Source of the DNA: Strigamia acuminata
Taxonomy: Eukaryota; Arthropoda; Chilopoda; Geophilomorpha; Linotaeniidae
NCBI GenBank assembly: GCA_949358305.1
Contig: OX442314.1
Coordinates: forward strand, 45,392,581 to 45,456,580
DNA: 64,000 nucleotides
Direction: 5' to 3'
This document shows, in pieces, positions 7,661 to 63,719 of the stretch. The position numbers were made by a program, and so were the translations under genes. Within the stretch, counting starts at the first letter, position 1. Each line of letters starts with the position of its first letter. A model generated the notes under the pieces. The model worked only from the letters and a program-made list of their open reading frames with translations. It did no database searches and was not told where the DNA came from.

Positions 7661-7662
7661 AT

Positions 7663-7683
7663 TGGTAGCAGAGGATGGTTTTC
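7663..7683 (+). promoter_or_regulatory. Copia-A primer-binding site (initiator tRNA-Met)
   Basis: TGGTAGCAGAGGATGG, two bases after the LTR end, is complementary to the CCA-bearing 3' end of animal initiator tRNA-Met (...CCATCCTCTGCTACCA). This is the usual primer class for Copia-like elements, though Drosophila copia itself uses an internal tRNA fragment. Confidence 0.9.
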
Positions 7684-8761
7684 ATCCTTTGCACGCTTAT
7701 TTTCCACTAACCGCTGCAGAAAATTCGCGTTTTTCGCGATTTTCGCGGCATTTTTTGTATTTTCAGGTGTTCGCGACGATTTTCGCTATTTTCGGGACGT
7801 TTCACGCCGCCGAATCAACCCTGGATTTATACAACGTCACGACGACGTTGTACACCAATTGTTTTCACCATTTATCGCCGAAAATTCCGCGAGTTTCGCG
7901 AATTTTCGTGCGAATTTATATTTTCAGGTTTCTCGCCATTTTCAAGCTGGATTTCCGTGATTTCTACGTCGACAACGTTCTACCGACGTGCACAAGCAAC
8001 CTGCACTACGCTTCACGTGATTCTCCAGCTAATTTCGTCCGAAATTGTACGGTCTCGCAAATTTCGAGGCGAATTTTCATATTTTTCAGGATTTCAACAA
8101 TTTTCTTTTTCGACAACGTCGACGAGACGTTTTACAACGAGAAACGAGACGATTCTCGCTTCATGCACCCCGGCGTGCATGTAGTATCGCCGATTTTTAA
8201 ATTATTTCGACGATCTGTGTATTTTTCACGAAGAGCCTCGTTAATTCGAGAAGAATTCGGTTTTTCGAAGCCGAATTGCGCTTTTCTAGCGGGTTTTTCA
8301 AGAAAACCCGTCTCGTGCTTTGCCGCGAGCCCGTGTGACCTTCCACGAGGGGATTCATCTATTTCTCCTTCCTGTCGTATTTAAATTGTTAGTTCTTAAG
8401 TGGGTATTTTGGAAAGGGACCTTTAGCATCGGCACTGCCCTACGGACAAGTCTGTCCAAGCGGTGTTTGTATTCTAAAGCAAGGCTGAGCCCTGCGCCAC
8501 CTAGCACTCCCGCAGCCCCAGGTGGCTATAAAGGAAGCTAGGGGGACACTTGCTTTAGGTTCTCAGCCGATTGTAGCATCGGCTCCCCATCTGGGATATC
8601 CGCTTTGAACCACGTGGGAGGTGATTTAGTGAATAGTGCAACGATTTTGTGTGAACAAACATTCGTCCACACTTCTTTGTGCCTTAGTGAAGTGCTTCGA
8701 TCGCCGTTGTACCATTTCCTGAGTCCGTGTGTTTTGCGTGGTGCGCTGAATCTTCGCGACG
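7684..8761 (+). other. Copia-A leader with divergent internal repeats
   Basis: 1.1-kb untranslated leader. Between about 7720 and 8160 three divergent units of roughly 150 bp each carry a TTCGCGATTTTCGCG-like segment, TATTTTCAGG and an AACGTC/GACGTT palindromic word. A 249-codon ORF (7635-8384) overlaps the LTR end, the primer site and this repeat. Its phenylalanine- and serine-rich translation has no recognisable domain and is more likely a product of the repeat than a gene. 8385-8761 is GC-richer and leads into the gag ATG. Confidence 0.6.
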
Positions 8762-10214
8762 ATGCAAAAGACAACGGAAACGACGGTCAGCAGGATTCCC
8801 ATCCTCTCTGTTGGGAATTACGAGCCCTGGCAGAGAGCGATGCGGATGCTTTTGAAGTCCGAGGGCCTTTGGAGGCATGTGACGGAAGAGAAGGAGGCCG
8901 ATCATCTTTTGACTTTAACGGACAAAGAGAAAGAACGTTACATGGTTAAAAAGGACAAAGCTCTCGGACACATTTACATGTATGTCAGCGAACCGAAACG
9001 TTCAGCCTTGGACAATTGTGATACTCCTAAACAGGCATGGGACGTCCTAGCAAAAGCGTACGCGCCTAGTTCGCGGGAGCGACGGGCAGCATTACGGTCG
9101 GAATTCTTGACTTTACATCTCGAAGCCAACGAGGAAATGCAGGATTTCATCAATCGAGTGGATCATTTTGTCCGTCAATTAGCCGACATCAAAGAGGTTA
9201 CGACAGATGATCACCATGCATACCAGTACCTCAACCGACTACCGCCCGAATACGCACAAGCAACGTTCGCTATATATCACTGGCCTGATCAGGATTTTAC
9301 ACCGACCAAAGTCGCTGAACAGTTGATTTCTGAATATCTACGGTTAAAGCCGATGGGATTGCATAATGTACACTCGTCTTCTGTGCATTCGTCTGTAAAA
9401 GGCCAACAACCCCGGAAGAGTTCTCGTCCTCGTCGACCTTTATCCGAAATTAAATGTTTCAACTGTAATGAGATGGGCCACTACGCGAACAAGTGTCCCC
9501 ATCCACGGCGGGAGGATCGCAATCAACCCTCGGCATCAGCTTCTTTCCAACGCTCTCGAAGCAAGAGCAAGAAGCGCAACAAAAACTCCGCGCCCAAACA
9601 CGACGATACGCGTCCGCGAGGCTGTTCTCGTCCGACACGAGAAGGGACATTCTTCGCCAGTGCCCCACAAGCCCCAGCGCGCCCAGTCGCTCATTTCATG
9701 CAATCCAACGAATGGATTGTCGACTGTGGCGCGACGGATTTTGTGGACATCGTGCCTTTCGACATCGAACTCGGACAAGGCAAGTCCAAGGTGACTGGAA
9801 AAGGAAATGTCCGACTGCTTACGAGAATAGATGACTGCGATTGTATCGTGAATTTGACGAATGTACTTTTTGCACCGAACTTCGAAGCCAATTTGATTTC
9901 GGTTTCCAAAATCGATAAAACACGTCATCACATACACTTTTACAACGGTGAAGTCAACATCTATCAATCGGACATTCGAAGTTCTATTCTTCGGGCGAAG
10001 GAGAAGGCTGGATTATATTATGTGGACGGTTTATGTTCAACACCTTCTGTGGCTACGACGGTTTCAATTCCGGTGTCGACGACAATTCCGCCACCAATTC
10101 AACAACCGCCAGTTTTGACTTATGTCACGACAGAAGTGGATTTTGAGAACATTCCGAAACCGAAAAAGGGGAAATCGAGACAAGGAGACATTACGGATTT
10201 TCGCATAGAAATGC
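8762..10214 (+). CDS. gag: Copia-A gag and protease (5' part of a split gag-pol)
   Basis: Starts at ATG 8762 (GCGACG context). The N-terminal 200 residues form a Copia-type gag (UBN2/Retrotran_gag_2-like: LSVGNYEPWQRAMRMLL, then TPKQAWDVLAKAY). A CCHC zinc knuckle, CFNCNEMGHYANKC, lies near residue 235, followed by a basic Ser/Arg/Lys tract. The protease motif is WIVDCGATDFV near residue 318, where most Copia proteases have D-S/T-G. After about residue 400 comes a proline-rich linker. The frame is broken at 10214 by the nested element and resumes without shift at 19563. The apparent stop at 10217-10219 lies in the inserted LTR. Confidence 0.93.
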
Positions 10215-10847
10215 TGTGACGGTTTTTAATGGCTATAAATGCCTATTTTCTATAGAAAAGCGCTGTTGTGTCATTATGACGGTATTTTTACAGTATTCTG
10301 TGTAAAACTGATAAATGTCTAGAATAAAGTCATTTATGATGTTTCAAATACAAAGATGTTCGTTTATTAAGAATAAACACTAATTTCCACATGATACTAA
10401 AGTATCACGGCATAATTACGAAGATTCGTCTGCTAAAACCCGCATTTGTCAATGCTCCATATTGCCACTAGATGGCGCGATCGCAATTAGCGATAAATTC
10501 GAATACGAACTTGAAAACCTCATGATTAAATATAAACGTATATTTAATCAAGTGAATAAATTGTGTTAAATATTAATATAAATATATATTAAATATCTGA
10601 CATTGTTAAATACAATGTAACTTCCATTTCTGCGGGACAGAATGTTTAGCGATCAATCGGTCAACCGATCAATCTGATTGGTGGAACCCATTTCCGGTCC
10701 TGGGTATCCAGTTCCGGTTGTAACAAGGATTAGCATAATTTGCATAAATGCTCCTCCGTATCCACTTCCGGTGATACGGGATTGGAGGGATTCGTGGAAC
10801 CCATGTTCCAATTGGATGACTGGATTAATCCTTAAATCCAGTCAGGT

Positions 10848-17633: not shown

Positions 17634-19558
17634 TGTGACGGTTTTTAATGGCTATAAATGCCTATTTTCTATAGAAAAGCGCTGTTGTGTCATTATGACG
17701 GTATTTTTACAGTATTCTGTGTAAAACTGATAAATGTCTAGAATAAAGTCATTTATGATGTTTCAAATACAAAGATGTTCGTTTATTAAGAATAAACACT
17801 AATTTCCACATGATACTAAAGTATCACGGCATAATTACGAAGATTCGTCTGCTAAAACCCGCATTTGTCAATGCTCCATATTGCCACTAGATGGCGCGAT
17901 CGCAATTAGCGATAAATTCGAATACGAACTTGAAAACCTCATGATTAAATATAAACGTATATTTAATCAAGTGAATAAATTGTGTTAAATATTAATATAA
18001 ATATATATTAAATATCTGACATTGTTAAATACAATGTAACTTCCATTTCTGCGGGACAGAATGTTTAGCGATCAATCAGTCAACCGATCAATCTGATTGG
18101 TGGAACCCATTTCCGGTCCTGGGTATCCAGTTCCGGTTGTAACAAGGATTAGCATAATTTGCATAAATGCTCCTCCGTATCCACTTCCGGTGATACGGGA
18201 TTGGAGGGATTCGTGGAACCCATGTTCCAATTGGATGACTGGATTAATCCTTAAATCCAGTCAGGTTATATAAACCCAAACAATCGGCCATTCCGCAGCT
18301 CTGTTTGATTATTTTCTGTTTGGTATTGTTACTTAAGAAATATGATTCGTTGTTCACGTAAAAAAACCTTTTGGTTCTTTGTTGATTTATTCACAAAGAA
18401 CCGTTGCATGATTCTACAGAATCATGCCACCGCCGGCAATTGAAGTCGAAGTGCTGGGATCATTATGTTGCATAAATGTTACAGTTTACGGTTGCGACGC
18501 CGAAGGAGAACCCGCCGTTGTGCAATTCAGTATCCTCCGGACAGGACCATGTGGTCTTTCTCGGTATGAACGTATTCCGTTACCGCAAGTAGCATCGTTG
18601 CTGTTGAGAATTAGTTCCTTCACCGGATGGTGCCAAAGCAGTCTGTTTTACAGTAACCACGAGTAGCACCAAGTGTTTGGCAAGCTGATTCTCATGGTAT
18701 TCGATGCCAAAGTAGTCGGTCTATTATTAGTACCGCGAGAGATTATACTGCTGTGCGGAGCCGCGAGCTATCGACTCCTGTGTACGTGATACCGTCAATC
18801 GCCAGACGAACGACCGTGTCGCGACGCAGGGGACGCTTGATACCGTTCTGCATTGCAAGGCGTATATTTTCTTTCGACGGCAATTGTGTGTTGCGACGGG
18901 AAGCCTAATCTTCATTTTATTTATAACAGCTAAATATTAACTTGGCGACAAGTTGATTAACCAAGTCAGAAGACTTAATTACGATCACGATTACATCAAA
19001 GACGCAAATGTAACTGATAAGTTGATGACAACTTATCCACAAAAATATCTAAATAAGAATTCACAACGATATGAATTAAATATAATTCATAAGCGGAATA
19101 TTGATAAGTAAAATGAATACATTTACTTACACCAATATCCTCCCAAAGTTGTGGCGGTGCAGACAAAGTCAACCGCAATGCTCAGATCATTCGATTTATC
19201 GACGTGCGATAATTTACACAGCGAACCAAGGAAACCAGCGAAGCCATATCGGACTCCAGGACACAGCCATCCGGCTTAGATGACATCTGTAAACCAGGTC
19301 GAGCGATGGGGAAACCGCTCCCTTATCCCAGACACGTAATGATATTATTTTAGGACCAATTGGCCTATGCTTTGTATAGTTTAATAGTCAGTTAACTTGC
19401 CAAATGTTGGCATTAGTCTTATGTATAATTTAGCTCACTGCATATTGTTTGCCAACAATAAATTGTCTTGTATTTATCTCGTATTGTATTCACTGTTATT
19501 TATCGCGATCTCTTCCCGGTACCATTGTTAAATGGGAGTTGTGGTCGTCACCGTCACA
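17634..19558 (+). repeat. 3' LTR of the gag-only element
   Basis: Second 1,925-bp LTR, ending CCGTCACA and followed by the ATGC target duplication. It includes the short ORF at 18424-18666 and a TATA box at 18267. Confidence 0.95.
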
Positions 19559-19562
19559 ATGC

Positions 19563-22500
19563 CACCAATTCCGAAGCAAATTCCGAATCAAATCGTCAAT
19601 CCTATCCAGTCTCAGACTGCTCCCAAATTCACCAATGTCCAGCCTGATCCTCCTGTCCAATCCTATTCCAACGTTCTCCAATCCATTCCGACAACGCCAT
19701 TACCTAATACTCCTCCTGCCATACCTCCTCCTCCGAGCAATCCTTCTAAGTCACCAAAGAAGGCAATTGCTAACCCTGCAAACGTAAAGGATGCTACGGG
19801 TCTATGGCATAGCAGATTAGGGCATTTGCACACTAATGCAATGCGCCTGTTGGCGAATAACGACCAAGTTTACGGAATGGAACCGGGAGAAGTAAAACAA
19901 GAACTTGCCTGCAATGACTGCCGTCTTGCAAAATCAATCAAAATTTCACACAAACCGGACCTTCACCCGAGTACCACCAAAGCACTCGACCTCCTGCATA
20001 TGGACGTGTGGGGACCGGCTCCTGCAACATCTTTCGGTGGAGCTCGTTTCGTTCTAACGATCATTGATGACGCTACACGATATACTTGGATTACCCCATT
20101 GGCGCAAAAGTCCCAAGTCTTCGCATGTTTTAAAGACTTTGCCGCTAGAGTCGAACGGGTTGCGAATACAACGATCAAGGCCATTCGCACAGACCGTGGC
20201 GGAGAATTCATGTCCAATGAATTCGAGCGCTATTTGAAGGACAAAGGGATCCAAGGGCAGCGAACGAACCCATCGAGCCCACAGATGAATGGAACGGCCG
20301 AACGCATTAACAGAACGATGGCAGACAACATCCGCGCGATTCATGAAGAAACCAAACTTCCGGCCGGTCTATGGGCAGAGCTTGCAGTAACTTTCGCTTA
20401 TATCAAGAACAGAAGCCCTCATTCACGCTTGAAAAATCAAGTTCCATACATACTTTGGCGTGAACGGGCATTATCTTTACGACACTTACGAAAGATCGGA
20501 TCAAAATGTTGGGTCCACTACACAGCGTCAGGCCGTAAAAAGCTTGAGCCACGCGCATGGGAAGGATACCTCGTTGGGTACGGGGTCGCGACACGTGGCT
20601 ACAGGATTTGGAATCCCATCGACAATAAAGTCACCGAATCAGCCCACGTTCGCATAGACGAACATCAATCGTACCGCAAATTTCTACGAAATATACCAAA
20701 TGGCAACAACGAGTCCTTTTACGAACCCAACAATGAACAACAAAGAGTGTCATTCAACGACACTGTCCAATATGCGAACTGGTCGATCAAGCCAGCATCA
20801 GATGATGAGCATTCGATATCCGAAGAAAAATCTGTATCCAAGTCGGCTTCTAAATCAAAGACGCCACCTATTCAGATTGTCCACATTCCACCCCCATCAA
20901 CGCCGGAACGACAGTTATTAGAACTTTGTGCATCAACATTGCCGACTCCAGCTCGTGGTTCCGTATCACATCCGATTACTAATGTGGAACACGAACAAAT
21001 AGCTGAAGGGCAGGACACCGACGATGATGTTGAGCAGATCGAGGAATTTGCGGTTCAACCGGACGCGGAAGAATTGCGACTGAATCAGTCTGCCCATGTG
21101 TCACCGGTAACGTCCAATGCCAGTTCTCCCGGCCTTTCACCACCGATGTCACCAAATCGTTTCATCACGTTACGAAAGAAAGCTGGTCCAAACATTCTGC
21201 AGCACACAATGCCAATTTTCGATCAGGGGCAAATGTCTCCATTGCCTCCTGGCGCAACACATGTTGCAGCTCCTTCTGCCGGCAAGACATCATTCTACTG
21301 GCGTTATGTCGGCGGAAACACAGTGTTTCGCAGATGGGTTCGCGAAGAACACCTACGAAAGGACCAACAGCCAGGTTCGATAGATATCGACGTCTACTAT
21401 TTTCCGGAACCCGGCCTTCGACTTCGATCTCGCAGAGACGTCGAAGAGTTTTGTGTCATGAACAATCTCCCTTACGACCCCGAGCTATTCTTTTTCGGCA
21501 ACATAGAACATACGCTACCGACGATTCCTCTTCTACCTCGGCACGTTGCTCACCTCTGTCGCACCGAACCGTCATCGTATGCGGAAATTCCCAAATTCGA
21601 CGACGCTCCAAAATGGCGTGAAGCCATCGATGAAGAGTTAGGAACTTTTAAGGAGCGGGAAATCTATGTCGAAGTGTCAAAACCGCCCGATACGACAATC
21701 CTGGGCTGTAAGTGGATTTTTAAACTCAAATCAGATGCGACCGGCAAGATTACTCGATATCGTGCTCGACTTGTCGCCCAAGGCTTTCGCCAAACCTTCG
21801 GAATCGACTACGACGAAGTCTTTAGTCCAGTAGTAAATTTCGTCCTCATTCGTCTATTCTTTTGCCTTTTGGTAGTGCTACGAGGATGGAAAGACGCACA
21901 TCTCGACGTCAAATGTGCATACCTGTACGGGGACCTGGAGCACAAGGTCTATATGCGCATCCCGGCAGGTGCCACCTGTAACCACCCCGACAACGTTTGG
22001 TTACTCGTGAAATCTCTTTACGGACTCCACCAGTCTGGCCGACAGTGGTATTTGAAACTGGACGAAGCACTTCAAGCCCTCGGATTCCGAAAAATGCCTG
22101 CATGCAATTGCGTTTACATCTATGGCAATTGTGCAGTTATGCTAGTCTACGTCGATGATATTGTACTTTTCTATGCAGCCGACAGTGTTTTGGACCGGAT
22201 TATTCGACTTATCACTTCGAAATTCGACATAGTCAACCTCGGCCCAATTACTAGACTGTTAGGCGTCGAGTTTATCCGCGAGATGGGACGCACTTACATC
22301 TCTCAACGTGCGTACATCGCTAAACTCGTTCAGAAATACGGGACATCGACCAATCGACTCGTTAAAGTGCCAGTGACACCCGGAACCACATTAGTTCGAG
22401 CATCGACAGAAGACCTGATCGATTTTCCCTACCGCTCACTCATCGGGTCATTACTCTTTCTGGCATCACGAACTCGCCCCGACATCTTATTCTCCGTCAT

Positions 22501-23089
22501 CTCGCTTTCGCAATTTAACACATGCTACGATAACACCCACATCCGTGCGCTCCTTCAAGTTCTCCAGTACGTAGCGAATACTATTGATTACCGTATCGAA
22601 CTTTCGAATTGTGCGTCAAGCCAATTATGGGCGTACACGGATGCATCGTGGGCTAGCGATTTGGCAACATCTTTAAGTTTCGGTGGCTTCATAACATATA
22701 TCGGGAACGTGCCAATTGGCTGGTCGTGTCGGAAACAATCGACTGTCGCGTGTTCAACTATGGAAGCGGAATTTCTCGCCCTAGTTGAATGCGTAAAGGA
22801 AACCTTTTGGCTCGATAACATCTTCACCGAATTCCCGATTTTGAACCGTCTGTCTCGTCCGATCATTTACTCAGATGCCCTAGCCAGCATACAATTCACA
22901 TCCAACGACGTGGAAAACTCGAAGACGAAGCATATCCGCGTCAAGTATCACTGGCTCAGGGAATGGTATACGGCAGGCTGTTTTGATCTCCGAAAAGTGT
23001 CCAGCGAGCACAACGTCGCGGACATATTCACTAAGTGGCTCAGTTCAGAGCGTCTTCAGTCGTTGATCTCTCGTGTGTTCCGACTTTAG
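19563..23089 (+). CDS. pol: Copia-A pol: integrase, RT, RNase H (3' part of split gag-pol)
   Basis: Continues the gag-pro frame after the nested insertion; together the parts give 1,660 codons. Seen in order: a proline-rich linker; the GAG-pre-integrase segment GLWHSRLGHLH; the zinc CNDC; integrase catalytic residues in LLHMDVWGP, RTDRGGEF and NGTAERINRT; a long variable region; RT with GCKWIFKLK, ARLVAQGF, CAYLYGDLEHKVYM and YVDDIVLF; RNase H with AYTDASWASD, TMEAEFLAL and DIFTKWLSSERL. No internal stop is present. An ATG at 19559 is the pre-insertion codon regenerated by the target duplication, and 19532-19558 belongs to the inserted LTR. Only the nested element blocks a full polyprotein. 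Confidence 0.95.
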
Positions 23090-23282
23090 ACTTTATCGTG
23101 ACATTCTTTTGTTATTCACCCGACTTCGAGGATCACCGAGTTTCTGCGGGAATATTCGGGCCTACGTGGCGTCTTCAATAACAGTACCCGGCTCGGCGAT
23201 TCGACTCTATTGTTTATTTTCGATTATTATCTACTGTAATTCCAGTAACCGTATTTCTTTTCCCCTGATTCTATCTCCATCG

Positions 23283-23293
23283 AAAGGGGGAAT
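23283..23293 (+). promoter_or_regulatory. Copia-A polypurine tract
   Basis: AAAGGGGGAAT ends exactly where the 3' LTR begins (TGTTGGTC at 23294). Confidence 0.9.
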
Positions 23294-23839
23294 TGTTGGT
23301 CTATTGGACCGCCAGTTGTGTCGATGTGACATAAAATCACATTCTTATTGTTTAATTATCTAATCTCGATGTATTTATCCCGTACTTATTTATATCCGAT
23401 GATATTTGTTTATTTAGATATTTTACATTTGTTTATTACTATTTAACACACAGTATCATGCTGTGTCCAGTGTTTTCTCTTAATTCAAGCTTTGTTTGAT
23501 TATATAATTCGTTTTCACGACACCAGGTGTCGTTACTGCTCTCTTTCACCTTCCAAGATGGCGGCGACCATCGTTTTGGCTCTCGCCTCTCGTTTTTCAC
23601 TTTGTAAGGACTTCATTTGTAAGTATTTTGGTTTAGTAAACTTGTTTTTATGTTTTTAAACATTGCTTTGTTTATTGCACGACATATAAGCGCATTTGCG
23701 CGGTCGTTTTATTCGTTTTTCGCTTCCGACGTCGCCCACACGTTCGCACGAGTAGTGCGACGCCTTCGCGAACATTTTCGCCACTTTTCGCTCAATATTT
23801 CGAGCGGGTTTGGTTGTTTTCCTCTGCTACCGACCTACA
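23294..23839 (+). repeat. Copia-A 3' LTR
   Basis: 546 bp, identical by eye to 7115-7660. It is followed by the TTTCC target duplication and then the interrupted Copia-B frame on the opposite strand. Confidence 0.95.
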
Positions 23840-23844
23840 TTTCC

Positions 23845-24990
23845 ATCCTGGTTGTAAATCAGGGTAACCAACGAATATTACTGGTTTTGCTCTGGGTTCC
23901 AATTTCTTACGATGCTGCTTTGGCACCCAAGCGTATGCCAAGCACCCAAAAATCCGTAGATGTTTAACTGTTGGTTTCACACCGGTCAAGCGTTCTATAG
24001 GAGTTTGTCCAACAAAACGCTTAGTTGGAGACCTGTTTCCAATATGAGCTGCCGTTGCAGCCGCTTCTGCCCAATATTCCATAGGGAGTTTAGCATCCTG
24101 TAACATGGTGCGTGTCTTGTCCAAAATTTTTCTGTTACTGCGCTCAGCGACTCCATACTGGGCTGGGCTATAAATTATAGTTTTCTGATGTTCAATGCCA
24201 TTTTGGGCCATAACATTGGCGAATCTTTTATTCAAAAATTCAGTCCCATTGTCGGTTCTTACAGTCTTGACGCGCATATCGTACTTGTTCTGTTGTACCG
24301 CTAAGAACTCCTTAAATACTTCAGTAACTTGATCTTTAGTTTTTAAAAATTTCAGAAAAATTGCTTTTGAATAATCGTCCACAATTGTATACATGTAAAC
24401 TGATCCTCCACAAGATGGTACGGTCATCGGACCACAAAGGTCCATATGTAGCATCTGGAGAGGTGCAGTACTCTTGATAGACTGGACCGACTTAAATGGA
24501 GAACGAGTAAGCTTTCCTGTCACACACGCCTGACACAAGGGTAATGGCTTGAGATTTTTCAAAAGTAAGTCTTTAACCATGTCCCTTGTGACCAATATCT
24601 TCAAATCCTGAAAGTTTAGGTGTGCAAATCTTCGATGCCAGAGAACAGTGTCTGAATCTTGGTTAGACTGTGTGACGGTTTTCCCAGCAAGGCTAGCCTC
24701 TGCTTCATCAGGTGATATGGAACATCTTCCCAATAAGGCTCTAAATGCAAACAAGGTATTCTTCATCTCTGCCTCCAACACAACTCGAGCATTTATATCC
24801 ACTATCTTACAAAAACTGTCCACGAACAATACAGAGCATCCCTTTTTAATGGCACGGCCAACCGAAAATAAATTGTTCGTTAATGACGGCACATATAACA
24901 CCTCATCCAGGTGTAATGTACAAAAACAGGAGAAATCCTTTCTAACAAGAATAGACGATCACTTCTTGATGACCCACCCTGTCCCCCTTT
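23845..24990 (-). pseudogene. pol: Copia-B integrase part (5' piece of split pol)
   Basis: Reads from about 24930 down to 23845 and joins 7114. It begins in the protease-integrase spacer (LYVPSLTNNLFSV), then WHRRFAHL and CQACVTGK (HHCC zinc domain), and the DDE core with HMDLCGP, RTDNGTEF and GVAERSNRKI. The C-terminal module KKLEPRAKPVIFVGY follows. No stops occur. Near 24975-24990 the minus strand reads AAAGGGGGACAGGG, which looks like a polypurine tract out of place, so the 5' truncation may reflect a template switch or deletion. Confidence 0.92.
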
Positions 24991-25074
24991 GATCTTGATG
25001 TCTAAAAGTTTAAATTACCGATATCACAGTGGCAAACATATTTGATAAAGCAAATAACTGAAGATCTTTTTAAC

Positions 25075-27060
25075 ATCTCGTCAACCTTTAGGGATTGGCA
25101 GCACATTGCAGGTGGATATGAAAAAGATTGCCCAGAAAGAAGATCATTGTTCCATTCCCATACGAAGTGTGACAGCACTAGGAGTGAACTTAACTCGTAT
25201 CCAAATATATCATCAAATGGACATCCGATGATGAAGCCGCTATTTGAGGTATTTTTTTGGACAGACTCGCAGATTTGTCTGCACTGGATCAAAAATACGT
25301 CCAAACGACCGCCAACCTTCGTCCATAATCGAGTCTTAGAAATAAGAGAGAAGTCGAAAATTGACGAGTGGAAACATGTGCCGGGCGTGGAAAATCCTGC
25401 CGACCGCCTAACGAGAGGAATGGACGCAGAAGCGATGATTGCCGAGCGACTTTGGTGGCAAGGACCAGACTGGCTGCGCGGAAGTCGTCGGGATTGGCCA
25501 AACCTACCGACAGAGCCGGTCGAAGAGCAAGACGAAATAGCTGAAATCCACGTCGAGGCGGTGCAGACAGTAACAATTAATATTTTTCCGTTTGCCAGGT
25601 TTGGGTCGCTGTCAAAAGCAATCCGAACGCTGGCATGGGTTTTCAGATTTGCTGACAATGCTGGAAGGCGACAGACAGATGCCAGCCAACGCGGTCGAGG
25701 TCCATTGACGGCCACCGAGTTGAAACGCGCAAGATTCGGTTTAATTCGAATTGCGCAATCGGAAGTTTATGGCCAGGAAATCGAAAGAATGAAGGATGGC
25801 AGACAGGTTCATGGGGAGTCAAAGCTGCGAAATTTGAATCCACGGCTGAACGAAAATGGATTGATTGAGCTGCAAAATAGACTACATGAGTCGCGAGATG
25901 TGCCCACTGCTATACAACCCTTGATTTTGCCTCCTAAACATCAACTGACAAATCTAATTTTACAATTTTCGCATTTACAGGTCCTCCATTGCGGATTGAC
26001 AGCCACGCTGTCCAAGTTTCGAGAAATTTACTGGACCCCATCCGCAAGGAGGACCTTGAAGTCGATGTTGGATCGATGCACCATCTGCAAGAAAATTAAT
26101 GGAAGACTAATGCGAGAGGTGCCACGCGCTCTGCCAGCCGACAGGACGTCCCAATGTCAACCGTTCGCCGTCACCGGAGTCGATTTTGCAGGTCCGGTGA
26201 TAGTAAAGGGACGAAAAACCAAAGCCTACGTAGCGGTTTTCACGTGCGCAACCATCCGGGCAGTTCATCTGGAGTTGGTTCCCTCACTAGCGACGACAGA
26301 CTTTTTGGGCGCATTCGAACGATTCATTAGCCGCAGAGGGCTCCCAAAGACGATGTACAGTGATAACGGGACCACTTTCCACCGTGCCCACTTAGAACTC
26401 GCTTCACTGCTGAACCACACCAAAACTATTTGGCACAAAAGGGTGTCGAATGGAAATTTATCGTCGAAAATGGACCTTGGTGGGGTGGGTTCTGGGAGAG
26501 GATGGTTCAGACTGTTAAAAGGTGTTTAAGAAAAGCCATTGGATCAGCACATCTAAATTTTTACCAACTTGGAACTTTTCTGGCGCAAACGGAAGCTGTG
26601 ATAAATCGTAGGCCAATTACCTACGTCTACGACAAACCAGGTGAAATCGAACCACTCACACCAGCACATTTTCTGACGGGTGTTATGCTGACCCATCTGC
26701 CTGATTCGGGAGCAACAGATGACCGCGAGCCAACGCAAAGGGAGTTCATTCGTCAATGGCGTTATCAGCAACGTGTGTTGCTTTCCTTTTGGACTCGCTG
26801 GTCGCGTGAATATCTGACCGACCTCAAAATTCAGACAGGCAGATCCAATACGCAGGAACTCCAGCTCGACGACGTCGTCATAGTGGAGGAACCATTCAAG
26901 CCACGTTTGAACTAGAAGATGGGCAGAGTGGTCGAAGTTAGACGGGGTCGAGACGATAAAGTCAGATCGTGTGAGCTTGTGCTTGCCAATGGAGGGAAAT
27001 TAAGACGACCCATTCAACGTCTTGTACGCTTGGAAGTGGGTTCTGAGGCTCCCCCGGCCG
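25075..27060 (+). pseudogene. BEL/Pao pol fragment (RNase H end and integrase)
   Basis: From 25247 the translation follows BEL/Pao pol: WTDSQICLHWI, FVHNRVLEI, HVPGVENPADRLTRG and LWWQGPDWL (RNase H tail). Then come the integrase zinc region (HLQVLHCG, CTICKK) and the DDE core with VTGVDFAGPV, MYSDNGTTF and, after a frameshift near 26430, GFWERMVQTVK. A C-terminal segment up to GKLRRPIQRLVRLE follows past a stop at 26913. Two frame breaks and missing gag, protease and RT make it dead. 25140-25245 matches other dispersed copies at 31130 and 43260 and may not belong to the element. Confidence 0.9.
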
Positions 27061-33160: not shown

Positions 33161-33179
33161 TTACTTGTTTACTAATTAA

Positions 33180-34495
33180 ATGTGGGCTTACAATATAAAG
33201 AGAATTGTAAATGCCACATTTATATAAAATGTGGGCTTACAATACAAGGCATGTAATTTTTACTAATTAGAGTTTGCTCTACAACCTTATAATGGGTAAT
33301 TATTGTTGGACAGGACTCTTATTTTAACCAATACTCTTCTGGAACTGAGTAGTGATAGAAGCAGCTATTGTAAAGTAATAATTCACCGACAAAGTTTAAT
33401 TGCTCATAAGTCATAATCATTCTAGAATTTAGAAACTCAAGTATAAAAATACCTGGTCTCAGTGTTCTGATAAGAATTATATGTAGACTGCCCGTAAAAC
33501 CTAAAGTCAATTGAACTGCCCTAATGTAGAAAGGAAAAAATATCTGATTCAATTTAACGTATTTCAAAATGTCGGTTTACATAACTAGAAATATTATAAA
33601 TGCCACATTTAAGAAAATGTGGGCTTACAATATAAAGAGAATCGTAAATGCCACATTTATGTGAAATGTGGGCTTACAATACAAGGAAAATAAAGTTAAA
33701 AAAAAATAGTATCAAATTCAAAAATGAAGAAAATTAAACACACTAAAGAAATGAGTTAAATATCTGCTGCCCAAATTGACCAGAGCTCTCTTTGGTTCCA
33801 CCAAGACGAGTAATGTCATCCATTTCGCCAGGGGTGACCACGAGTATTTAGAGAGTTGGATTTTACACCCCCGAAAATAAACTTGCCGAAATTTTACATT
33901 TATCGGACGAAAATATTTCGTCCAACTTATCAAATCAAATCAATATACCATTCTTGAAATATTCAACTTGTCAAAAAATCCGCCATGAAAATTGCAAATA
34001 CGGTGACATTTTTCAGCTTTGTTCTTCAAAAAATTTCACTAAAAGGGCGGTTATGCAACAACTGAGAAACACTCGGATGAAATTAAAGCAAATTCACGAA
34101 AGTAATGACAAAATCTATCGAAAATCTACCGAAATGCACAGGAAAATCCAACGTGGCGTACCGGCGTGCTTCCATTCTCTGCAATGGCGATGGCGATTTA
34201 AACGGGGTTCACATCGTGAAAACACGAGTGCTGACTACAAGCAGAACCATTCTCTACACTTTTGCATTTTTAAACTCTTCGATGAAATTGATGCAAACAG
34301 TAAAATTTTCGGAATAAATACATATCAATTAAAAAAATATAATTATCAATAAATTCTTGTTCTTCCGTGTCAGCTTCGAAATGTGAAAACCAGGACCACA
34401 CACCATGCCATTAATGAGTCACGGATGCCACCTAGTGTTATAAAGTTTAAGATACAAAAAACATTTCAAATATTAATAAATTGTATTTACCACAA
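33180..34495 (+). repeat. Dispersed repeat family 1, copy 2 (most complete)
   Basis: Includes the block TACTAATTAGAG..GGGTAATTATTGTTGGA and two tandem TGCCACATTT..AAATGTGGGCTTACAATA units (33599-33690) with an internal palindrome. The distal part is shared with 1-535. Relative to copy 3 it carries an extra 150 bp at about 33775-33920 flanked by CCAA. No coding capacity seen. Confidence 0.8.
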
Positions 34496-35309: not shown

Positions 35310-38300
35310 ATGGGTGAACGCAAACTGATTCGGCCATTTGAACGGATCCAACAACGTCGACAAAGAAAAATGCAACACCTTGTTGGCAACTTTGAACGGA
35401 TCCAACAACGTCGACAAAGAAAAATGCAACACCTTGTTGGCAACGTGATGGCAGAACATTCGGAGATCCCAGCATTTATCAAATCTATTAAGAACATTTC
35501 AAAAAATAAGATAAAGATATCTATTGTTTTATTTACACTGCTCATTGTGAATTTGGCAGTGTGTTTTTTCCAAACCGGAGAACGCATTTGGCATTACTTG
35601 AACGAACCAACAACAGTCGATGCATATTTTATTGAAACCACATACGGCGCTTTCCCAAATGTTTATATTTTCCCAGAAACAACGCGAGAATATCAAAATT
35701 TTCTTGCAGAAAAAACGGGCAGAGCAGTATTCCGAGGAACCTGTAATGGATACTATGATCTGAGTACCAACTATGAAATTTCAATACCAGAAATTGTAAG
35801 ATATTTGAATATCCCCAGTTACATAACTGATGCATACTTCACAATGGTAAATCCCCATTTTCCCTTTTCATTTTATCAAGAAATAATGAAATACCTTTAC
35901 AGGGAAAAACACAAAGCAATTTTGAAATCCAAAACTATCTTAATCTTCTACAGCCGGTTGCTCAGGTTTCAAGCCGTAAGTTTAAAAAAATAAATACACC
36001 CACATTAATTATTATAAACGTTCTTTTTCTTTAGCTTTGCAAATTTTATTTGGAAATGTTAATTACAAGATGGCCATCAAACTAAAATTTCCTAGAGACT
36101 GTCGTTATGCTGACGTGAGTCTTTAATTAAAATAGGGGGTAGTAACCATGCACGTTACAAAGTGATTAAATAAATAATGAAATACATAATATAACTACTT
36201 ATCAAACAATTTCTTACAAAATAAGAAAAACCTGTAATGGCAATTGGAAAAAATTGTAATTTTCTAGTTAATTCAAAGTGTTCTATTTCTTTTTAAATTT
36301 TGTAGGTATTAATAGATTCATCGCCTGTAGCTCATCTTAAATACGAAAAAAGTGCTACACTGCAATTAACACGCTCTAATGGAACGAAAAAACTTCCAGT
36401 TAAAACTATTGCTACAACTATTGTGCAAAAAGTAAGACAACCAAAGTAGAAGTTTGTTGCAATTTAGTTGGGAAGTGTAATTTAGACACAAAGTATACTG
36501 TACTCTGTCCAGTACAGTTTAGTCTGGAGGGCATGACCTAAAATTCGAGTTTGACTTAATCTGACCTATCAGATCTAGTCAAACTCAAATTTTAGAGCAT
36601 GCCCCGCCGTAGCCGGGTAGATAAATACAACCAATCATTATTACGTGTAAATTCTCTTTATGGTATTTCAATTTTACAAGTCTAAATTCATGTTTCAGTA
36701 TAACTTCATCAACACAAAAAGAAATCCTTGTGATGACAACTTAATCGGCTGCTTGCATCCTTGTCTCCTCAAACTTATTACTTGCAGGTACTGTACATGT
36801 GTTTTAGCACATTATTCCATTCGTTTACTCTGAACCGAAACTTTGAATGCACCTAATGTTACTGAACTCATTTTTCAGATCTCCGTTTTTTAAATCAGGA
36901 CACCTGCCAAAATGCAACGACTCTTACATAAGAAAGCAATATAGAATGGTGTTAATATTCACTCTTAAAACAGATCTAAGAAAACATTGCAAATGTCGCA
37001 ATTTATGTGAAGTGACAAAACTAAGCATTAGCTATGAAGAATTGCTTAGTTCTGAGATTGCTCTCGATGTTATAGTTGCTAATAATAATGTCCGAACATT
37101 GCAAGAACGTTTTTCGTACGACATTATTTCTTTACTGTGTGACATTGGTGGAAACATCGGACTCTACTTCGGAATGTCTTGTTTAACGCTTGTCCAAATA
37201 TTTATTCACAGCTGCAAAATGCCCTTCGTGAAGTTCAGAAAACTGACAAAGGCAAATTCCATGATGAAAGACAAAATTCAGACAATACTTGAAAGAAGTC
37301 AGAAAACACAACAAAAATTCGTTGTCCAGCAGAGACTAAAATACTTGGTTTTGACAATTCTGATGCTCTTGTCAGTTTATAATGTTTACAATCAAATTGG
37401 TACTTACCTGGATTTTCCAATCGTCAAAACTGTTAGTCTTGTAAGAGACAACATTATCCATTATCCACTCATTGTCAATTGTCCAGACACTTATTCAATA
37501 TATAAGGCTAAGGAAGAGTTAGCAAAAAACCTTAGCACAGTTTGCTCTAATTACCAACTCTTTGATTTACTTCATGCTAAATCTCGATTTGTAAACAATT
37601 CACTCCAATTATGGAACCACTAAAGATATTGATGGAATATACTTAAACGAAATGACAAAAAAGTTGAGAAAATGGACCAAAGTAAGAAATTAAAATTTAA
37701 AAAAACCCATACATAAATAATTTTATTATTTGGACTTTAACATCACTTAGTAAAGAGTTAGTTGTCATTGAGCCAACTAAAATAATTACACATGCCAGAA
37801 TTTTTACTGTAATTAGCAATTGCGTTTACAAATAATTTCTTTTTTTAGTATGCCGAAGTGGATCTCACAAGTGTCAACATATCATACATGTCCACAGTGT
37901 TTGGAATGTGCACAGTGTTTAAGAAAGGTGCAAATAATTAACAAAACTCAAATATTTTATCGTTCACTTGTATATGTTTACAGTTGAGGAGCAATATATT
38001 CCAAAGAAAAACAGAATAAGATTTAAGGAAGGAATCCAGTATTTTGCCCGAAGCTGCAGTACACCTCAACCAGTGAGATAATTTGTGAATTCATTTGTCA
38101 TTCAGATGTTTATTTCTTTGAACTCGTTGTAGGACTTCATTCTGCCACAAAATCAATTTTTTCATCCTAAACACATTTATTACAGATACGATAACTTTAA
38201 CGTTAAAATCGATCTTCGGCGTCAAACGGTAGAATTTGTGCACATGGTAACCCAGCACGTTATTAACTGAATTCGTTTCTTTCAGTTAATTCGAGTAAAT

Positions 38301-38835
38301 GTTCCCAACCGTTTATGTCAGGCGAATGAACTTGTTGCCGAATGTGAACAGAAATGTTTTAAAGCAAAGCTTGACCAGGAACCATTCGAATGCAAGTCAG
38401 TATCCATAATTTAAGATATTTTAAGACAATAGCATAAAAGACAATAAATCTCAACCTACTATAAATAAAATGCACTAACGCTTTTCGCATCATATCATTA
38501 GATTACCTTTTATGGAAAACAGTTCATTACCATTCTGCGAGGATCACATAACAGCGAAGAGAACTACCAAACAATACATGGGGATTCAATTCAAGACAAA
38601 TCCTCAGAAAGACTGCTCCTGTGCAGTACGCTGTGAAGAATCAATATTCATACCTCTAATAAATAAAGAAAAAGGGCTCGACTATGAGATGAAATACAGT
38701 ATTGACAGCAACATCCGAGAAGTGATAAAAGAGGAGACAGAAATTTCCATTGTGAAATTACTTTGTCAAATTGGATCAATTTTTGGTATCTTGACCGGTC
38801 TCTCAATATTTTGCCTTGTTGAACATTTCATTTGA
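35310..38835 (+). CDS. Tandem (two-unit) DEG/ENaC sodium channel
   Basis: DEG/ENaC (pickpocket-like) cation channel protein of the plasma membrane. Exons: 35310-35846, 35903-35975, 36035-36114, 36306-36431, 36699-36787, 36879-37681 (with a 1-nt frame problem at 37609-37610), 37849-37927, 37984-38072, 38133-38228, 38286-38395, 38502-38835. All junctions are GT-AG and phases agree; the total is about 804 residues. Unit 1: TM1 at residues 68-88, Cys-rich extracellular loop, TM2 with LLCDIGGNIGLYFGMS (GXS filter GMS, near residues 386-412). Unit 2 follows in the same exon after a linker of about 45 residues: TM1 YLVLTILMLLSVYNVYNQI, a PLIVNC segment, a Cys-rich loop, and TM2 LLCQIGSIFGILTGLS with filter GLS. 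It ends just after TM2. Family members normally have one unit and assemble as trimers. The start ATG is tentative, since in-frame Met also occurs after the N-terminal duplication. Confidence 0.85.
35337..35444 (+). repeat. Exact 54-bp tandem duplication in the channel N-terminus
   Basis: 35337-35390 and 35391-35444 are identical and encode FERIQQRRQRKMQHLVGN twice, in frame, in the cytoplasmic tail before TM1. Perfect identity implies a very recent duplication. Confidence 0.95.
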
Positions 38836-39606
38836 TACCACCTCAAAATCTTTAACTGCATCTCGCCTACCGTAGTATACAGATACACCAAACTGGATAG
38901 ATAATTCTTATTCCACAGTAGTCTAGTTGTTACACTTGTGTTATCTCCTCTCTGAATATTGAAGCCTTGTATTGTTATTTTTAGGTTATGTCCTTTGTAT
39001 TTCACCGCTAGGGTGACGATTTGCACCAAGCTTCAAAGGAGTTTTATTGTTATTAGTAGGAAAATATTGATTTTCTTTGTTATGCCCATTTACAGTAGTT
39101 GAGTTGTTATCTTTATGCTAATTAAATTGGACGTGTTTAATTTTTTTCTTTTGAGGATTGTTTTTCCCGCAATGCAGCGCTGTGAGAGCGCATTTATGTC
39201 CTCCAGCATGGATTGCAGGGTATCCGGACGTTTTCCAACCAGACAGATAAGGTGATTGAATGAAGTTAACCAAGCTACAGTTAGCACTACTTTTGCTGAG
39301 AACATACTGCAAAAACTGGCGTTTCTAAGAGTGTGGTGTGGGGTTTGTACGAGATCAAACAAAGCAAAACGAGGTCAAACAGTGAAGCCAACATTAAGGA
39401 GGTGTTTTTTGATTGAGATTCAATAACGTGCAACAGGAAGCGTACGCAAAGAATCATAAATTATCATAAGGTTACTTTGTTCCTTTGAAATTGTACCTGT
39501 GAACCCCGAAGATGGGGTTGAAGTCGGGTCATTTCGTCGCCGATGGTTTCGTAGTCTTAGTGCCAAAAAATCAATGTTCTTACTAATTTTTTTGTGGGTC
39601 ATCCAA
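38836..39606. other. Unassigned spacer
   Basis: No gene recognised. A 90-codon minus-strand ORF (39090-39362) has no family resemblance that I can support. A single TCATTTCGTCGCC occurs near 39530. Confidence 0.4.
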
Positions 39607-40900
39607 ATGGATTTTTCGCGTCAAAACAGACAAAAATGGAAAGATTAAACGATATAAAGCTCGACTTGTGGCACTTGGGTGTACACAGAGGCCCGGGATG
39701 GATTATCAAGAGACATATTCTCCGGTTATCTGTATGGAAACATTGAAGATGCTTATCAATATAGGAGCAAAGAAAGGGATCACAATTGAACAGGATGACG
39801 TGAAAACTGCATACCTTCACGGGAAAAAACAAATTACATGAATGAACCATATGGATATCAAAGCAAGAAAAAGGGAAAAACGTGTCGCATCTTGAAGAGT
39901 ATTTATGGCCCTAAAACAGAGCGGTTGTTGTTGGTTCGAAAAAATGCATGAAGAATTGGAAAGACTCGGTTTTAACCTTCCCATAGCCAAGCCTAGTTTC
40001 CACCATTGCTAGCTGTGGTTGGTCAAATCGGCCTTCTTTTAAAATGCTTCTGCGCATGTGAAGAATCTTATTTCTCCAGGTGCAATCGCATTTTTCCTGG
40101 CCTCAGCACATGTTATAATGTGCTCAAACCAGAAAAAATGCGATTGCACCTGGAAAATTAAGATTGTGCACATGCGCAGAATCGTTTCAATATACCGCCT
40201 AGTGCTAAAAAGTGGCAAAACAGTGTACGGCGCTCGTGTAATGGTGTTTTATGTTGTAAATATTATTCATTTTTCTTGTTTAACTTATTACTTATCAACA
40301 TAATATTAGAAGTTAGTTATTATAAATTTAGAAAAAAAATTTTTGGAGGAATTAAAGCTGGTCCCCTAAATTAATTTTCAGGAAAAAAAAAGTTACAGCT
40401 ATTTTACTACTTTTTTTATTTTTCTGACCCACCATGGCTATGGGAAGGTTAAAGAGTCATTATGTGATCCATGTTTGTATCTCCTTAAACAAGGACCAGA
40501 TTTCCTTTATCTAGGCATCTACGTTGATGATATCGTCATGTTAAGCTCTACTCCAGAATTTAAAAAGGAGGTTATGGCTCAACTATAAAAGGAAATTGAG
40601 TTGGTGCATCTTGGAGAGTTAACATTTATTCTCGGTCTTGAAGTCGACCAAAGGGAAGATGGGATTTTTTTAAGTCAACACAAATACGTGTAGAAGCTTT
40701 TGGAGAAGTACGGTGTACACAAATCAAGACCTAGACAACTTTAAAGACAGTCTGCTGGTCGATCCGACATTTTACCAATAGATGATCGGCTTAGTCATGT
40801 ATTTGGCGACCAGAACAAGACCTGACGTCAGCTATGCGATTAGTGCTCTATCGCAATACAACAAGGATCCAAGGGCAATCCATTTGCAAGCTGTAAAACG
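39607..40900 (+). pseudogene. Dead Copia RT fragment (Copia-C)
   Basis: From TGG 39607: WIFRVKTDKNGKIKRYKARL, MDYQETYSPV and IEQDDVKTAYLHG (RT). After frame breaks and the MITE at 39976-40448: LYLGIYVDDIVM (YVDD box), LTFILGLEVDQ, and RTRPDVSYAISALSQYN. It stops abruptly where the BEL-like LTR starts. Several stops are present. Confidence 0.88.
39976..40448. mobile_element. piggyBac-type MITE with internal foldback
   Basis: 473 bp flanked by TTAA (39972-39975, 40449-40452), with 14-bp terminal inverted repeats CCTTCCCATAGCCA. A long imperfect palindrome at 40041-40187 (arms of about 70 bp, including TTCTGCGCATGTG and CCAGGTGCAATCGCAT) fills the centre. No ORF. It is inserted into Copia-C. 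Confidence 0.92.
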
Positions 40901-41285
40901 TGTGAAAATCTGATAATTTTACAGATGATTTATATGTTATTACAGAGTATTTGTGAAGTGTTATATTTAGTGATTGTAGTATTTTATTTGTTTTATTTAC
41001 ATTTTGCACTATTTCCATATTTGTCAGAGTCAACCCTCCTCAATCTTAATCCTTTAATTGAGGGTTTTCCCTTAGTTTGTTGAACTCCAGTTTTCCTGGA
41101 AATATGTGGGTCATCCACTCAAGACCCCTTTCTTTTGCTTTAAGAATAAAGTGTGTTACCCTTGTTTTTAAGACGTGTGGTTTTGCTTCATTTCTCTGCT
41201 CAAGACGCCATTTTATATTTCATGTATCTCCTCAAAACTAAAACATTATTTGTATCCAAGAACTAAAGAATTTATTACTAGGTTT
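40901..41285 (+). repeat. BEL-like LTR, second type
   Basis: Starts TGTGAAAATCTGATAATTTTAC, the same hairpin design as 27065. It has AATAAA near 41145, and its 3' part resembles 27600-27720. No pol follows, so it is a solo LTR or a truncated copy. Confidence 0.65.
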
Positions 41286-62652: not shown

Positions 62653-63660
62653 GTTTTAAAAAAATTGTGTAAATTGTTTTTATAGTGAAGGATCCGATAC
62701 CGATCCGGTGTCCGATCGCCGGGAAATTCAGGTTTGATCAGCGGGGCGACATTCCGTTCACGACGCGAATCAGGGGTGGAATTACGCAGTCGCCCCGGCC
62801 TAACGTGTATTGCAAGGAAAATATATCGGATTTTTCCGTTTGCGATGGTGACCAGCGACAAATTTTAATCGATGCCAATTATTGCTTGTCGGTGGATTAT
62901 CTGGGCCGACCAGTCGACATTTACAGTAAGTATGATTCTTTTTTTTGAGAAAAGAATATTTTTATGCGAAATAAACCAATTTATGCATTAAAAGCCAAAA
63001 AAATTAACTTTTATGACATCAAAAAATGCATTGCGACACCAAACAGAGCATTTTTATGGAAAAAAATGATTTATGCTAAAAAAAAATCCATGCTTAAGCC
63101 TAAAAATCATATTTTCGTAATGCTCAAAGAATGCATTACAGTACTAACAAAAATCATTACAGTGCTCAAAAAATGTATTTTTAAGCTCAAAAAATTTATT
63201 TTTCAGCTCAAAAAATTTATTTTTAAGCTCAAAAAATTTATTTTTAAGCTCAAAAAATTTATTTTTAAGCTCAAAAAATTTATTTTTAAGCTCAAAAAAT
63301 TTATTTTTAAGCTCAAAAAATTTATTTTTAAGCTCAAAAAATTTATTTTTAAGCTCAAAAAATTTATTTTTATTTCTATTTATTTGTATAACCATTTATC
63401 TTGTATTCTAGGTGATCCCGATTACATCATGAGCTGTGTTGGCTTTTGGAAAGAGAATCTCCGCTCTTACTTAATCACAACCGATGAGGAAGACGCGTTC
63501 AATCGCTTTCGTTGCTGGGTCTACCAGAGAGCCGATTTGAACAGTGTCATGATGTCATACGGCGTCGGTGACTATTGCAACACTAATCAACGCGTAGACA
63601 GCTTCAACTTTTCCGAAGGAGCCTCCACCGCCATCTACATGACGGAATACGAACGCGAAC
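58668..63660 (+). CDS. Secreted Cys-rich protein, DUF7042-DUF7045-like (5' part)
   Basis: Multi-exon gene running off the right edge. Secure exons: 59998-60303, 60376-60479, 61202-61524, 62457-62611, 62686-62925, 63412-63660, all GT-AG with consistent phases. A possible first exon is 58668-58716, encoding MGGAAEAVLHFVLLFA and splicing in phase to give a signal peptide before ECVNLPFG. The protein has many spaced cysteines and motifs such as YSCLGDWFVDKNHYF, KYRCF, GSWINTANIDAEVV, DGCQKDYIC, VYCKENISDFSVCD, YCLSVDYLGRPVDIY and CWVYQRADLN. The order and spacing resemble the conserved arthropod proteins annotated with DUF7042, DUF7043 and DUF7045, whose function is unknown. It is probably extracellular. 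The introns contain tandem arrays. The last exon ends in phase 1, so coding continues beyond the window. Confidence 0.75.
59040..59660 (+). repeat. 31-bp minisatellite in intron 1
   Basis: The core unit GTCCAAATTTTGTCTAAAAA plus TGTCAAATTTT repeats about twelve times with exact 31-bp spacing (for example 59165 and 59196). It is flanked by shorter, diverged variants. Confidence 0.95.
60600..60750 (+). repeat. 21-bp minisatellite in intron 3
   Basis: Units of AATGCATTTTTCGCATCAC plus AA, about six, increasingly diverged at the ends. Confidence 0.85.
60762..61060 (+). repeat. 31-bp minisatellite in intron 3
   Basis: AAATGCTTATTTACACATGG plus ATAACACCTAT repeats about eight times. Starts at 60762 and 60793 confirm the 31-bp spacing. 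Confidence 0.95.
61785..62000 (+). repeat. 31-bp minisatellite in intron 4
   Basis: GATGAATTAAGTGCAAAAAT plus GACCAAAAACT, about six or seven units at 31-bp spacing, unrelated in sequence to the arrays at 59040 and 60762. Confidence 0.92.
62619..62651 (+). repeat. Poly-T run after a splice donor
   Basis: About 35 T residues directly after GTAAG of the exon ending at 62611. Length is likely variable and prone to sequencing error. Confidence 0.9.
63165..63372 (+). repeat. 21-bp minisatellite in intron 6
   Basis: CTCAAAAAATTTATTTTTAA plus G, about nine to ten units. Because 21 is a multiple of three and the unit lacks stops, long spurious ORFs appear on both strands. Confidence 0.95.
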
Positions 63661-63719
63661 GTAAGTCCCGCACAATGCGAGCACGAAACGATCATTTTCC
63701 TTTATTCAGTTTTTGATGA

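What the first reader, a model, noticed from the sequence alone, without database searches (positions are those of the whole stretch)
35310..38835. Two DEG/ENaC channel units fused head to tail in one gene
The exon from 36879 encodes TM2 of unit 1 (GGNIGLYFGMS), a linker of about 45 residues and TM1 of unit 2 without a stop. Five downstream exons in matching phases complete unit 2, including its own GXS filter (GLS). DEG/ENaC channels assemble as trimers from single-unit subunits, so a concatemer poses a stoichiometry puzzle. Alternatively, transcription might produce two products.
Basis: partly seen in the sequence, partly recalled or inferred. Interest (0 to 1): 0.88.

Follow-up and report, generated by a model that had tools for sequence, protein, structure and literature searches.

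The report
Hundreds of fused two-unit centipede channels
A soil centipede carries hundreds of ion-channel gene copies in which two copies of a normally single subunit are joined into one reading frame, an arrangement that does not fit the three-part channels this family is known to build; the copy in this window is a damaged one.

Summary
The fusion is real and reaches far beyond this locus. The window is Strigamia acuminata (geophilomorph centipede), contig 1. An 11-exon gene at 35310-38835 holds two DEG/ENaC units; exon 36879-37681 runs through unit-1 TM2, a 43-residue basic linker and unit-2 TM1 without a stop.

The architecture is intact elsewhere. Three capped searches of the same genome give 301 distinct loci with such an exon (this one included), in several divergent subfamilies; 226 lie in 29 clusters. 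Five stop-free two-unit genes were modelled nearly end to end. The linker is coding-constrained (median dN/dS 0.45). Two separate parts of unit 2 each group together in trees, without full support, favouring one old fusion. Apparent single-unit genes coexist.

Best reading: natural two-unit DEG/ENaC subunits, probably sensory receptors, filling two of three trimer positions. Continuity is shown by sequence; transcripts, assembly and function are inferred. The listings of my ten paper searches showed no description.

The parts
35310..35846 (+). exon 1: start, unit-1 N-terminus and TM1 (TM1 about 35514-35576)
   Evidence: ATG; donor GTAAAT; N-terminus MGE(R/H)KL shared with L040 and L044
35337..35444 (+). 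perfect in-frame 54-nt tandem repeat in exon 1 (18 aa twice)
35903..35975 (+). exon 2, unit 1
   Evidence: AG/GT bounds; homologous in L039, L042, L044
36035..36114 (+). exon 3, unit 1
36306..36431 (+). exon 4, unit 1
36699..36787 (+). exon 5, unit 1 (ends in phase 2, split R codon of C-R-x-P-F)
36879..37681 (+). exon 6, the fused exon: end of unit 1 with TM2, linker, start of unit 2 with TM1; frame broken near its end
37147..37179 (+). unit-1 TM2 start GGNIGLYFGMS with filter GMS (37171-37179)
   Evidence: motif counted genome-wide
37207..37335 (+). linker, 43 residues, strongly basic
   Evidence: 39-43 residues, mean net charge +10.2 (range 5 to 15) over 30 family members, the window copy included
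37336..37401 (+). unit-2 TM1 region
   Evidence: hydrophobic stretch LKYLVLTILMLLSVYNVYNQIG; in other members this part matches the start of Pfam ASC
37592..37623 (+). zone in which the reading frame changes: this copy is broken here
37849..37927 (+). exon 7, unit 2
37984..38072 (+). exon 8, unit 2
38133..38246 (+). exon 9, unit 2
38286..38395 (+). exon 10, unit 2
38502..38835 (+). exon 11: unit-2 TM2 with filter GLS (38797-38805) and stop

Best explanation
The locus is a frameshifted member of a very large family of natural two-unit DEG/ENaC channel subunits in the centipede Strigamia acuminata. Origin: two single-unit genes lay head to tail; the last exon (TM2) of the first and the first exon (TM1) of the second became one exon, losing the first gene's stop and most of the second unit's N-terminus; this most likely happened once, and the fused gene then multiplied in tandem arrays. 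Product (inferred): one polypeptide, inside-TM1-ectodomain-TM2-cytosolic basic linker-TM1-ectodomain-TM2-inside, with two selectivity filters. Working (inferred): the linked pair takes two neighbouring places of a trimeric cation channel and a third subunit, most simply one of the single-unit DEG/ENaCs in the same genome, takes the third. The size, clustering and fast divergence suggest sensory, probably chemosensory, receptors. My split: single polypeptide 0.9; sensory role 0.65; two-plus-one assembly 0.45; this window copy a pseudogene 0.85.
For: Open fused exon at 301 distinct loci, a lower bound since the searches score only about 150 candidates each. Five genes without internal stops from query residue 1-17 of 792 to the stop: L039, L040, L041, L042, L044; L051 from residue 44, where its locus begins. 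Intron phases 0,1,0,0,2 in both units in the window model and in 4 of 7 distinct loci with ten or more modelled introns: L039, L042, L044, L051. Linker 39-43 residues, mean net charge +10.2, n=30; median dN/dS 0.45 (linker, 421 pairs), 0.42 (unit 1, 429), 0.47 (unit 2, 431) among 431 of 435 pairs with dS 0.05-1.5. Both units carry a filter and in L040 both exceed the Pfam ASC cut-off. Unit-2 rows of the sampled fused subfamilies form one side of a branch for the N part (12 rows, 88/91) and the C part (9 rows, 89/86). The second G of the TM2 GG motif is replaced in 9 of 9 unit-2 rows (8 S, 1 N) and is G in 19 of 19 unit-1 and single-type rows. Single-type genes: stop 17-23 residues after the filter in L001-L005; L002 holds start and end of what looks like one single-unit gene. 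L006: a TM2 exon with a stop, and the next TM1-bearing frame opening 330 nt later on the same strand. Nearest solved relatives are centipede sensory DEG/ENaCs PDPNaC1 and BRTNaC1.
Against: No transcript, protein or current was examined. Unit-1 rows do not form one group; their unity is not rejected (p-AU 0.31, 0.29); no unit-2 support is starred, and the program warns of long branches meeting (L074 with L075), so several fusions remain possible. No direct evidence for a third partner, for 2+1 or for chemosensation. The closest 14 pairs have whole-exon dN/dS of 0.26-1.17, mostly 0.6-0.8, so some copies may be under weak constraint or decaying. Of 7 distinct loci with ten or more modelled introns, L040, L041 and L049 differ in phase at one or two junctions or have an extra intron, real or aligner error. 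L039 (same gene as L027) has SLS instead of G-x-S in unit 2; L052 has two stops in unit 2. The protein search with the L040 product found nothing at E<=1e-3; I do not know how much animal sequence that database holds.
Confidence: 0.72

Rival explanations
1. Two-unit proteins assemble without a partner: three polypeptides supply six units that form two trimers, one of unit 1 and one of unit 2, or two polypeptides form one trimer with a spare unit.
For: Both units keep TM1, TM2, cysteine motif and filter; no third partner is identified.
Against: Unit 2 lacks the G-containing motif before TM1 that is seen in 10 of 10 single-unit, unassigned or B-type unit-1 rows (by eye), so a unit-2-only trimer would lack it in all subunits. 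This is weak evidence.
Confidence: 0.35
2. The two units are made as separate products, by alternative promoter and polyadenylation or by cleavage of the linker.
For: ATG codons lie in the linker of the window copy (37261); the linker is rich in basic residues.
Against: No stop lies inside the fused exon in 147 of 150 scored matches, so unit 1 has none of its own; the linker is coding-constrained; by topology it is cytosolic, where furin-type cleavage is not expected (inference).
Confidence: 0.07
3. The window locus alone is a chance fusion or a misassembly of two neighbouring genes.
For: This copy is frameshifted and stands in transposon-rich sequence.
Against: The same kind of fused exon recurs at 301 loci on seven chromosome-size contigs and six small ones; reported assembly QV 59.6.
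Confidence: 0.02
4. Fusion happened several times independently, one per subfamily, because tandem single-unit genes lie very close.
For: L006 suggests single-unit neighbours a few hundred bases apart; unit-1 rows are mixed with single-type rows in the C-part tree.
Against: Unit 2 groups together in two separate parts of the protein and shares the GG to GS/GN change.
Confidence: 0.25

Closest known systems
DEG/ENaC (Pfam ASC PF00858) channels, e.g. ASIC1, insect pickpocket
   Same: Each unit has TM1, cysteine-bearing ectodomain, TM2 and a G-x-S filter; in L040 both units score over the ASC cut-off
   Different: Known members carry one unit per polypeptide and form trimers (established knowledge, recalled); here two units are joined by a 39-43 residue linker, and unit 2 lacks the motif before TM1 (by eye)
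Centipede (Scolopendra) BRTNaC1 (8ymr/8ymw) and PDPNaC1 (9jf7)
   Same: Best sequence matches of the L040 product among solved structures: PDPNaC1 2.2e-6 with its best stretch in unit 1, BRTNaC1 3.4e-6 with its best stretch in unit 2; PDPNaC1 is an antennal homotrimer (abstract start)
   Different: Single-unit chains of 421 and 431 residues; proton-dissociation and heat gated (passages). Those passages name no expansion or fusion
Insect pickpocket expansion in crickets
   Same: Clustered, lineage-specific duplication of DEG/ENaC genes (passages of PMC8203789). Passages of PMC7738191 say that family members were shown or suggested to be chemoreceptors in insects and mites
   Different: Cricket class V has 14-15 genes; the passages seen mention no two-unit genes
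Two-pore-domain K+ channels and four-repeat Na+ channels (recalled)
   Same: Subunit duplication and fusion reduces the number of chains per channel
   Different: Those divide evenly into a four-fold pore; two units do not divide a three-fold pore

Membership tests
DEG/ENaC (PF00858) | PF00858 match over gathering cut-off in each unit | tested here: met
   L040 unit 1 (with linker) 46.7, unit 2 28.3 bits, cut-off 23.6; in the broken window copy unit 1 43.6, unit 2 only 16
DEG/ENaC (PF00858) | G-x-S selectivity filter in TM2 | tested here: met
   Unit 1: 28 GMS, 1 GVS, 1 GMC of 30; unit 2: 10 of 12 A-type models G-x-S (12 models, 9 distinct genes); the other two models, L027 and L039, are one gene with SLS
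DEG/ENaC (PF00858) | C-x-C...C ectodomain cysteines before TM2 | tested here: met
   C-x-C-x3-C in 27 of 28 C-part rows of both units and single types (first C missing in S_L005), alignment, read by eye
DEG/ENaC (PF00858) | His-Gly type motif before TM1 (recalled) | tested here: inconclusive
   A G motif without the His in 10 of 10 single, unassigned and B-type unit-1 rows, A in its place in 5 of 5 A-type unit-1 rows, not seen in the 12 unit-2 rows (by eye)
DEG/ENaC (PF00858) | One unit per polypeptide (usual, not formally defining) | tested here: not met
   Two units in one open gene
DEG/ENaC (PF00858) | Trimeric assembly and sodium or cation current | not testable with these tools
   needs protein or electrophysiology
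Sensory/chemoreceptor gene family | Large, tandemly clustered, fast-diverging family | tested here: met
   226 of 301 loci in 29 clusters of three or more; median dN/dS of the whole fused exon 0.44-0.51
Sensory/chemoreceptor gene family | Expression in sensory neurons, ligand response | not testable with these tools
   no RNA or physiology data

The most novel reading that the evidence does not exclude
Geophilomorph centipedes, in whose sequenced member no insect-type odorant receptors were found, built a separate receptor system from covalent DEG/ENaC pairs: hundreds of two-unit tuning subunits that each need a shared single-unit co-subunit to complete a trimer, a trimeric-channel counterpart of OR-Orco, with the linker enforcing a fixed order of unequal positions round the pore.
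Probability: 0.28. Interest if true: 0.95.

Novelty: new variant of a known kind. Interest (0 to 1): 0.86.

Why it matters
DEG/ENaC channels are three-fold, and their subunits are thought of as single units. A family with hundreds of natural two-unit copies suggests that evolution has kept a covalent pairing that does not divide the trimer, so subunit order and stoichiometry, normally studied with artificial concatemers (recalled), could be read from natural ones. It may also be a large sensory receptor family in a group where no insect-type odorant receptors were found (S. maritima, section 14 of PMC4244043). That paper lists sodium transport among functions enriched in lineage-specific duplicates, alongside taste (section 9); its chemosensory section covers GR, IR and binding-protein families, not DEG/ENaC.

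Tried and rejected
Rejected: chance fusion at one locus; a third unit: unit 2 is followed by a stop in all nine distinct A-type loci whose end was reached (L039-L044, L046, L051, L052) and in L058, L072, L074 and L075; an ordinary intron repairing the window frame; transposon origin of the family (tandem clusters, shared introns; inference). The fold of the window exon 6 alone had mean pLDDT 33 and was not used. The protein search gave no hit at E<=1e-3. Rfam and tRNA scans of the window were empty. The unit-2 end of the L054 gene was not seen among frames of 60 or more codons in the 1.9 kb fetched downstream (L076). The count search with the L054 exon never ran.

Limits of counts: 301 counts exons, not proven genes, and includes the window; six of the 301 lie on small contigs and some may be alternate haplotype copies; 17 of 150 listed rows were dropped because they did not span both TM helices (none of the 150 and 137 rows); one search had one match more than it listed. 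Of 72 C-terminal PF00858 hits, 59 had no listed fused exon within 6 kb, but some of these lie inside the fused clusters and may be unit 2, and for most single-type genes only the last exon was seen. dN/dS used 30 distinct fused exons from 39 of 44 loci; 5 loci failed the motif filter. In one search, 9 of 37 loci were not modelled because they lack the exact motif used for orientation. The test of the phase-2 intron (14 of 17) cannot tell a split codon from an ordinary AGA or AGG arginine codon, so it is only consistent with a shared intron.

Full report
Origin of the window. The held genome is 237,517,015 bases in 157 contigs, and the window is contig 1, 45,392,581-45,456,580.

The gene. I modelled eleven exons on the + strand. 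Unit 1 is exons 1-5 plus the first part of exon 6; unit 2 is the rest of exon 6 and exons 7-11. The frame of that exon, however, ends at TAA 37621-37623, and unit 2 continues in another frame. In the eight paralogs inspected the same region is one frame. This copy is therefore broken; with the reported QV an assembly error is possible but unlikely.

The family. With the exon-6 protein as query the genome gave 150 scored matches (of 1619 first-look candidates), the window itself included, 147 of 150 without an internal stop. A degenerate pattern for the unit-1 filter with up to one mismatch gave 187 hits, the reversed control 0. Four of the longest open frames in the PF00858 list, too long for a last exon (C8:11.12, C1:27.69, C1:16.79, C1:7.35 Mb), proved to be fused exons of other subfamilies; other long frames of that list were not looked at. 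Two of the four used as queries gave 137 and 151 matches. The union, requiring coverage of both TM helices, is 301 distinct loci; 226 lie in 29 clusters of three or more with gaps under 100 kb.

Gene models. Several loci are overlapping fetches of one gene. Five genes run from query residue 1-17 of 792 to the stop without internal stops: L039, L040, L041, L042, L044; only L040 and L044 align from residue 1. L051 runs from residue 44, where its locus begins. L052 has two stops in unit 2; L047, L048, L049 and L050 were followed only in part, as were L043, L045 and L046. The phase series 0,1,0,0,2 stands in unit 1 and again in unit 2 in the window model and in 4 of 7 distinct loci with ten or more modelled introns (L039, L042, L044, L051); L040, L041 and L049 differ at one or two junctions or by an extra intron. 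This is the mark of two whole genes joined at an exon. A phase-2 intron at C-R-x-P-F in other DEG/ENaC exons is consistent with the sequence (14 of 17), but that test cannot exclude plain arginine codons.

Constraint. Over 30 distinct A-type fused exons, 431 of 435 pairs with dS 0.05-1.5 give median dN/dS of 0.42 (unit 1), 0.45 (linker), 0.47 (unit 2); the 14 closest pairs have 0.26-1.17 for the whole exon, mostly 0.6-0.8. The linker is held at 39-43 residues with mean net charge +10.2. This fits a coding, cytosolic linker and a fast-diverging receptor family; the high values of the closest pairs also allow weak constraint on young copies.

Unit differences and origin. Unit 1 and unit 2 of L040 are 26% identical over 147 residues. 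In 9 of 9 unit-2 C-part rows the second G of the GG motif is replaced (8 S, 1 N); 19 of 19 unit-1 and single-type rows keep it. Single-type, unassigned first exons and B-type unit 1 have a G motif before TM1 (10 of 10 rows by eye), A-type unit 1 has A there (5 of 5), and I see no such motif in the 12 unit-2 rows. Trees of the N part and the C part, made separately, each put all unit-2 rows on one side of a branch (88/91, 89/86), not at the starred level and with a warning of long branches; unit 1 does not group but grouping is not rejected (p-AU 0.29, 0.31). One fusion before the subfamilies split is favoured, not proven. L006 shows what a precursor may have looked like: a TM2 exon with its stop, and the next TM1-bearing frame opening 330 nt later on the same strand.

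Single-unit relatives. L001-L005 end 17-23 residues after the filter and carry GG, not GS; in L002 the first and the last exon of what looks like one single-unit gene lie in one locus. Of 72 C-terminal PF00858 hits 59 have no listed fused exon within 6 kb. This is an upper guide to the single-unit number among the hits scored, since some of the 59 lie in the fused clusters.

Homology tests. Both units of L040 exceed the Pfam ASC cut-off (46.7 and 28.3 bits against 23.6), and L051 gives two stretches with 106 bits in all. Among solved structures the L040 product is nearest to PDPNaC1 (best stretch in unit 1) and BRTNaC1 (best stretch in unit 2), both single-unit channels of the centipede Scolopendra, with ASICs behind (PMC12714832 seen as abstract start and passages).

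Mechanism. Shown: continuous two-unit coding in the modelled loci and a continuous fused exon in many more, two filters, a constrained linker. Inferred: one polypeptide, cytosolic linker, sensory role, single-unit partners. Unshown: assembly. A trimer cannot be made from two-unit chains alone without a spare unit or a second trimer, so I favour two places from the pair and one from a single-unit subunit; the absence of the pre-TM1 motif in unit 2 speaks mildly against unit-2-only trimers.

Literature. Ten paper searches, including the phrases two ASC domains, two ENaC domains, two-domain ENaC and fused ENaC, showed no two-unit DEG/ENaC in the rows listed; the library is open-licence PMC only. 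The S. maritima genome paper (sections 9 and 14 and passages read) reports sodium transport among functions enriched in lineage-specific duplicates, and its main text has no occurrence of degenerin or sodium channel. That enrichment may be this family in the sister species; this is my inference.

Noticed in passing
window 5202-10219, 19532-24958, 39560-40913: Several Ty1/copia-like open reading frames, some long, one degraded just downstream of the gene; a BEL/Pao-like stretch at 25006-26915. Named by eye only.
   Followed up: no
window 33173-33710: 45- and 101-nt repeats with AAATGTGGGC and GCCACATTTA ends upstream of the gene.
   Followed up: no
window 36529-36604: 36-nt inverted repeat with a 4-nt loop inside intron 4.
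   Followed up: no
window 62949-63716: Open frame made largely of a repeated KKFIFKL-like unit.
   Followed up: no
L006 (C6:3523627-3526974): Apparently two single-unit DEG/ENaC genes head to tail, the second's TM1-bearing frame opening 330 nt after the first's last exon; a possible picture of the state before fusion.
   Followed up: partly
C1:4.2-8.1 Mb (L056, L059-L062): A second large fused subfamily, 74 loci brought in by its own query in this region, with a more canonical start of the second unit (EPVTKTV) than the window type.
   Followed up: partly
C6:3.7-4.2 Mb: A further cluster of 23 fused exons, distant from the L056 query (about 30% identity), not fetched.
   Followed up: no
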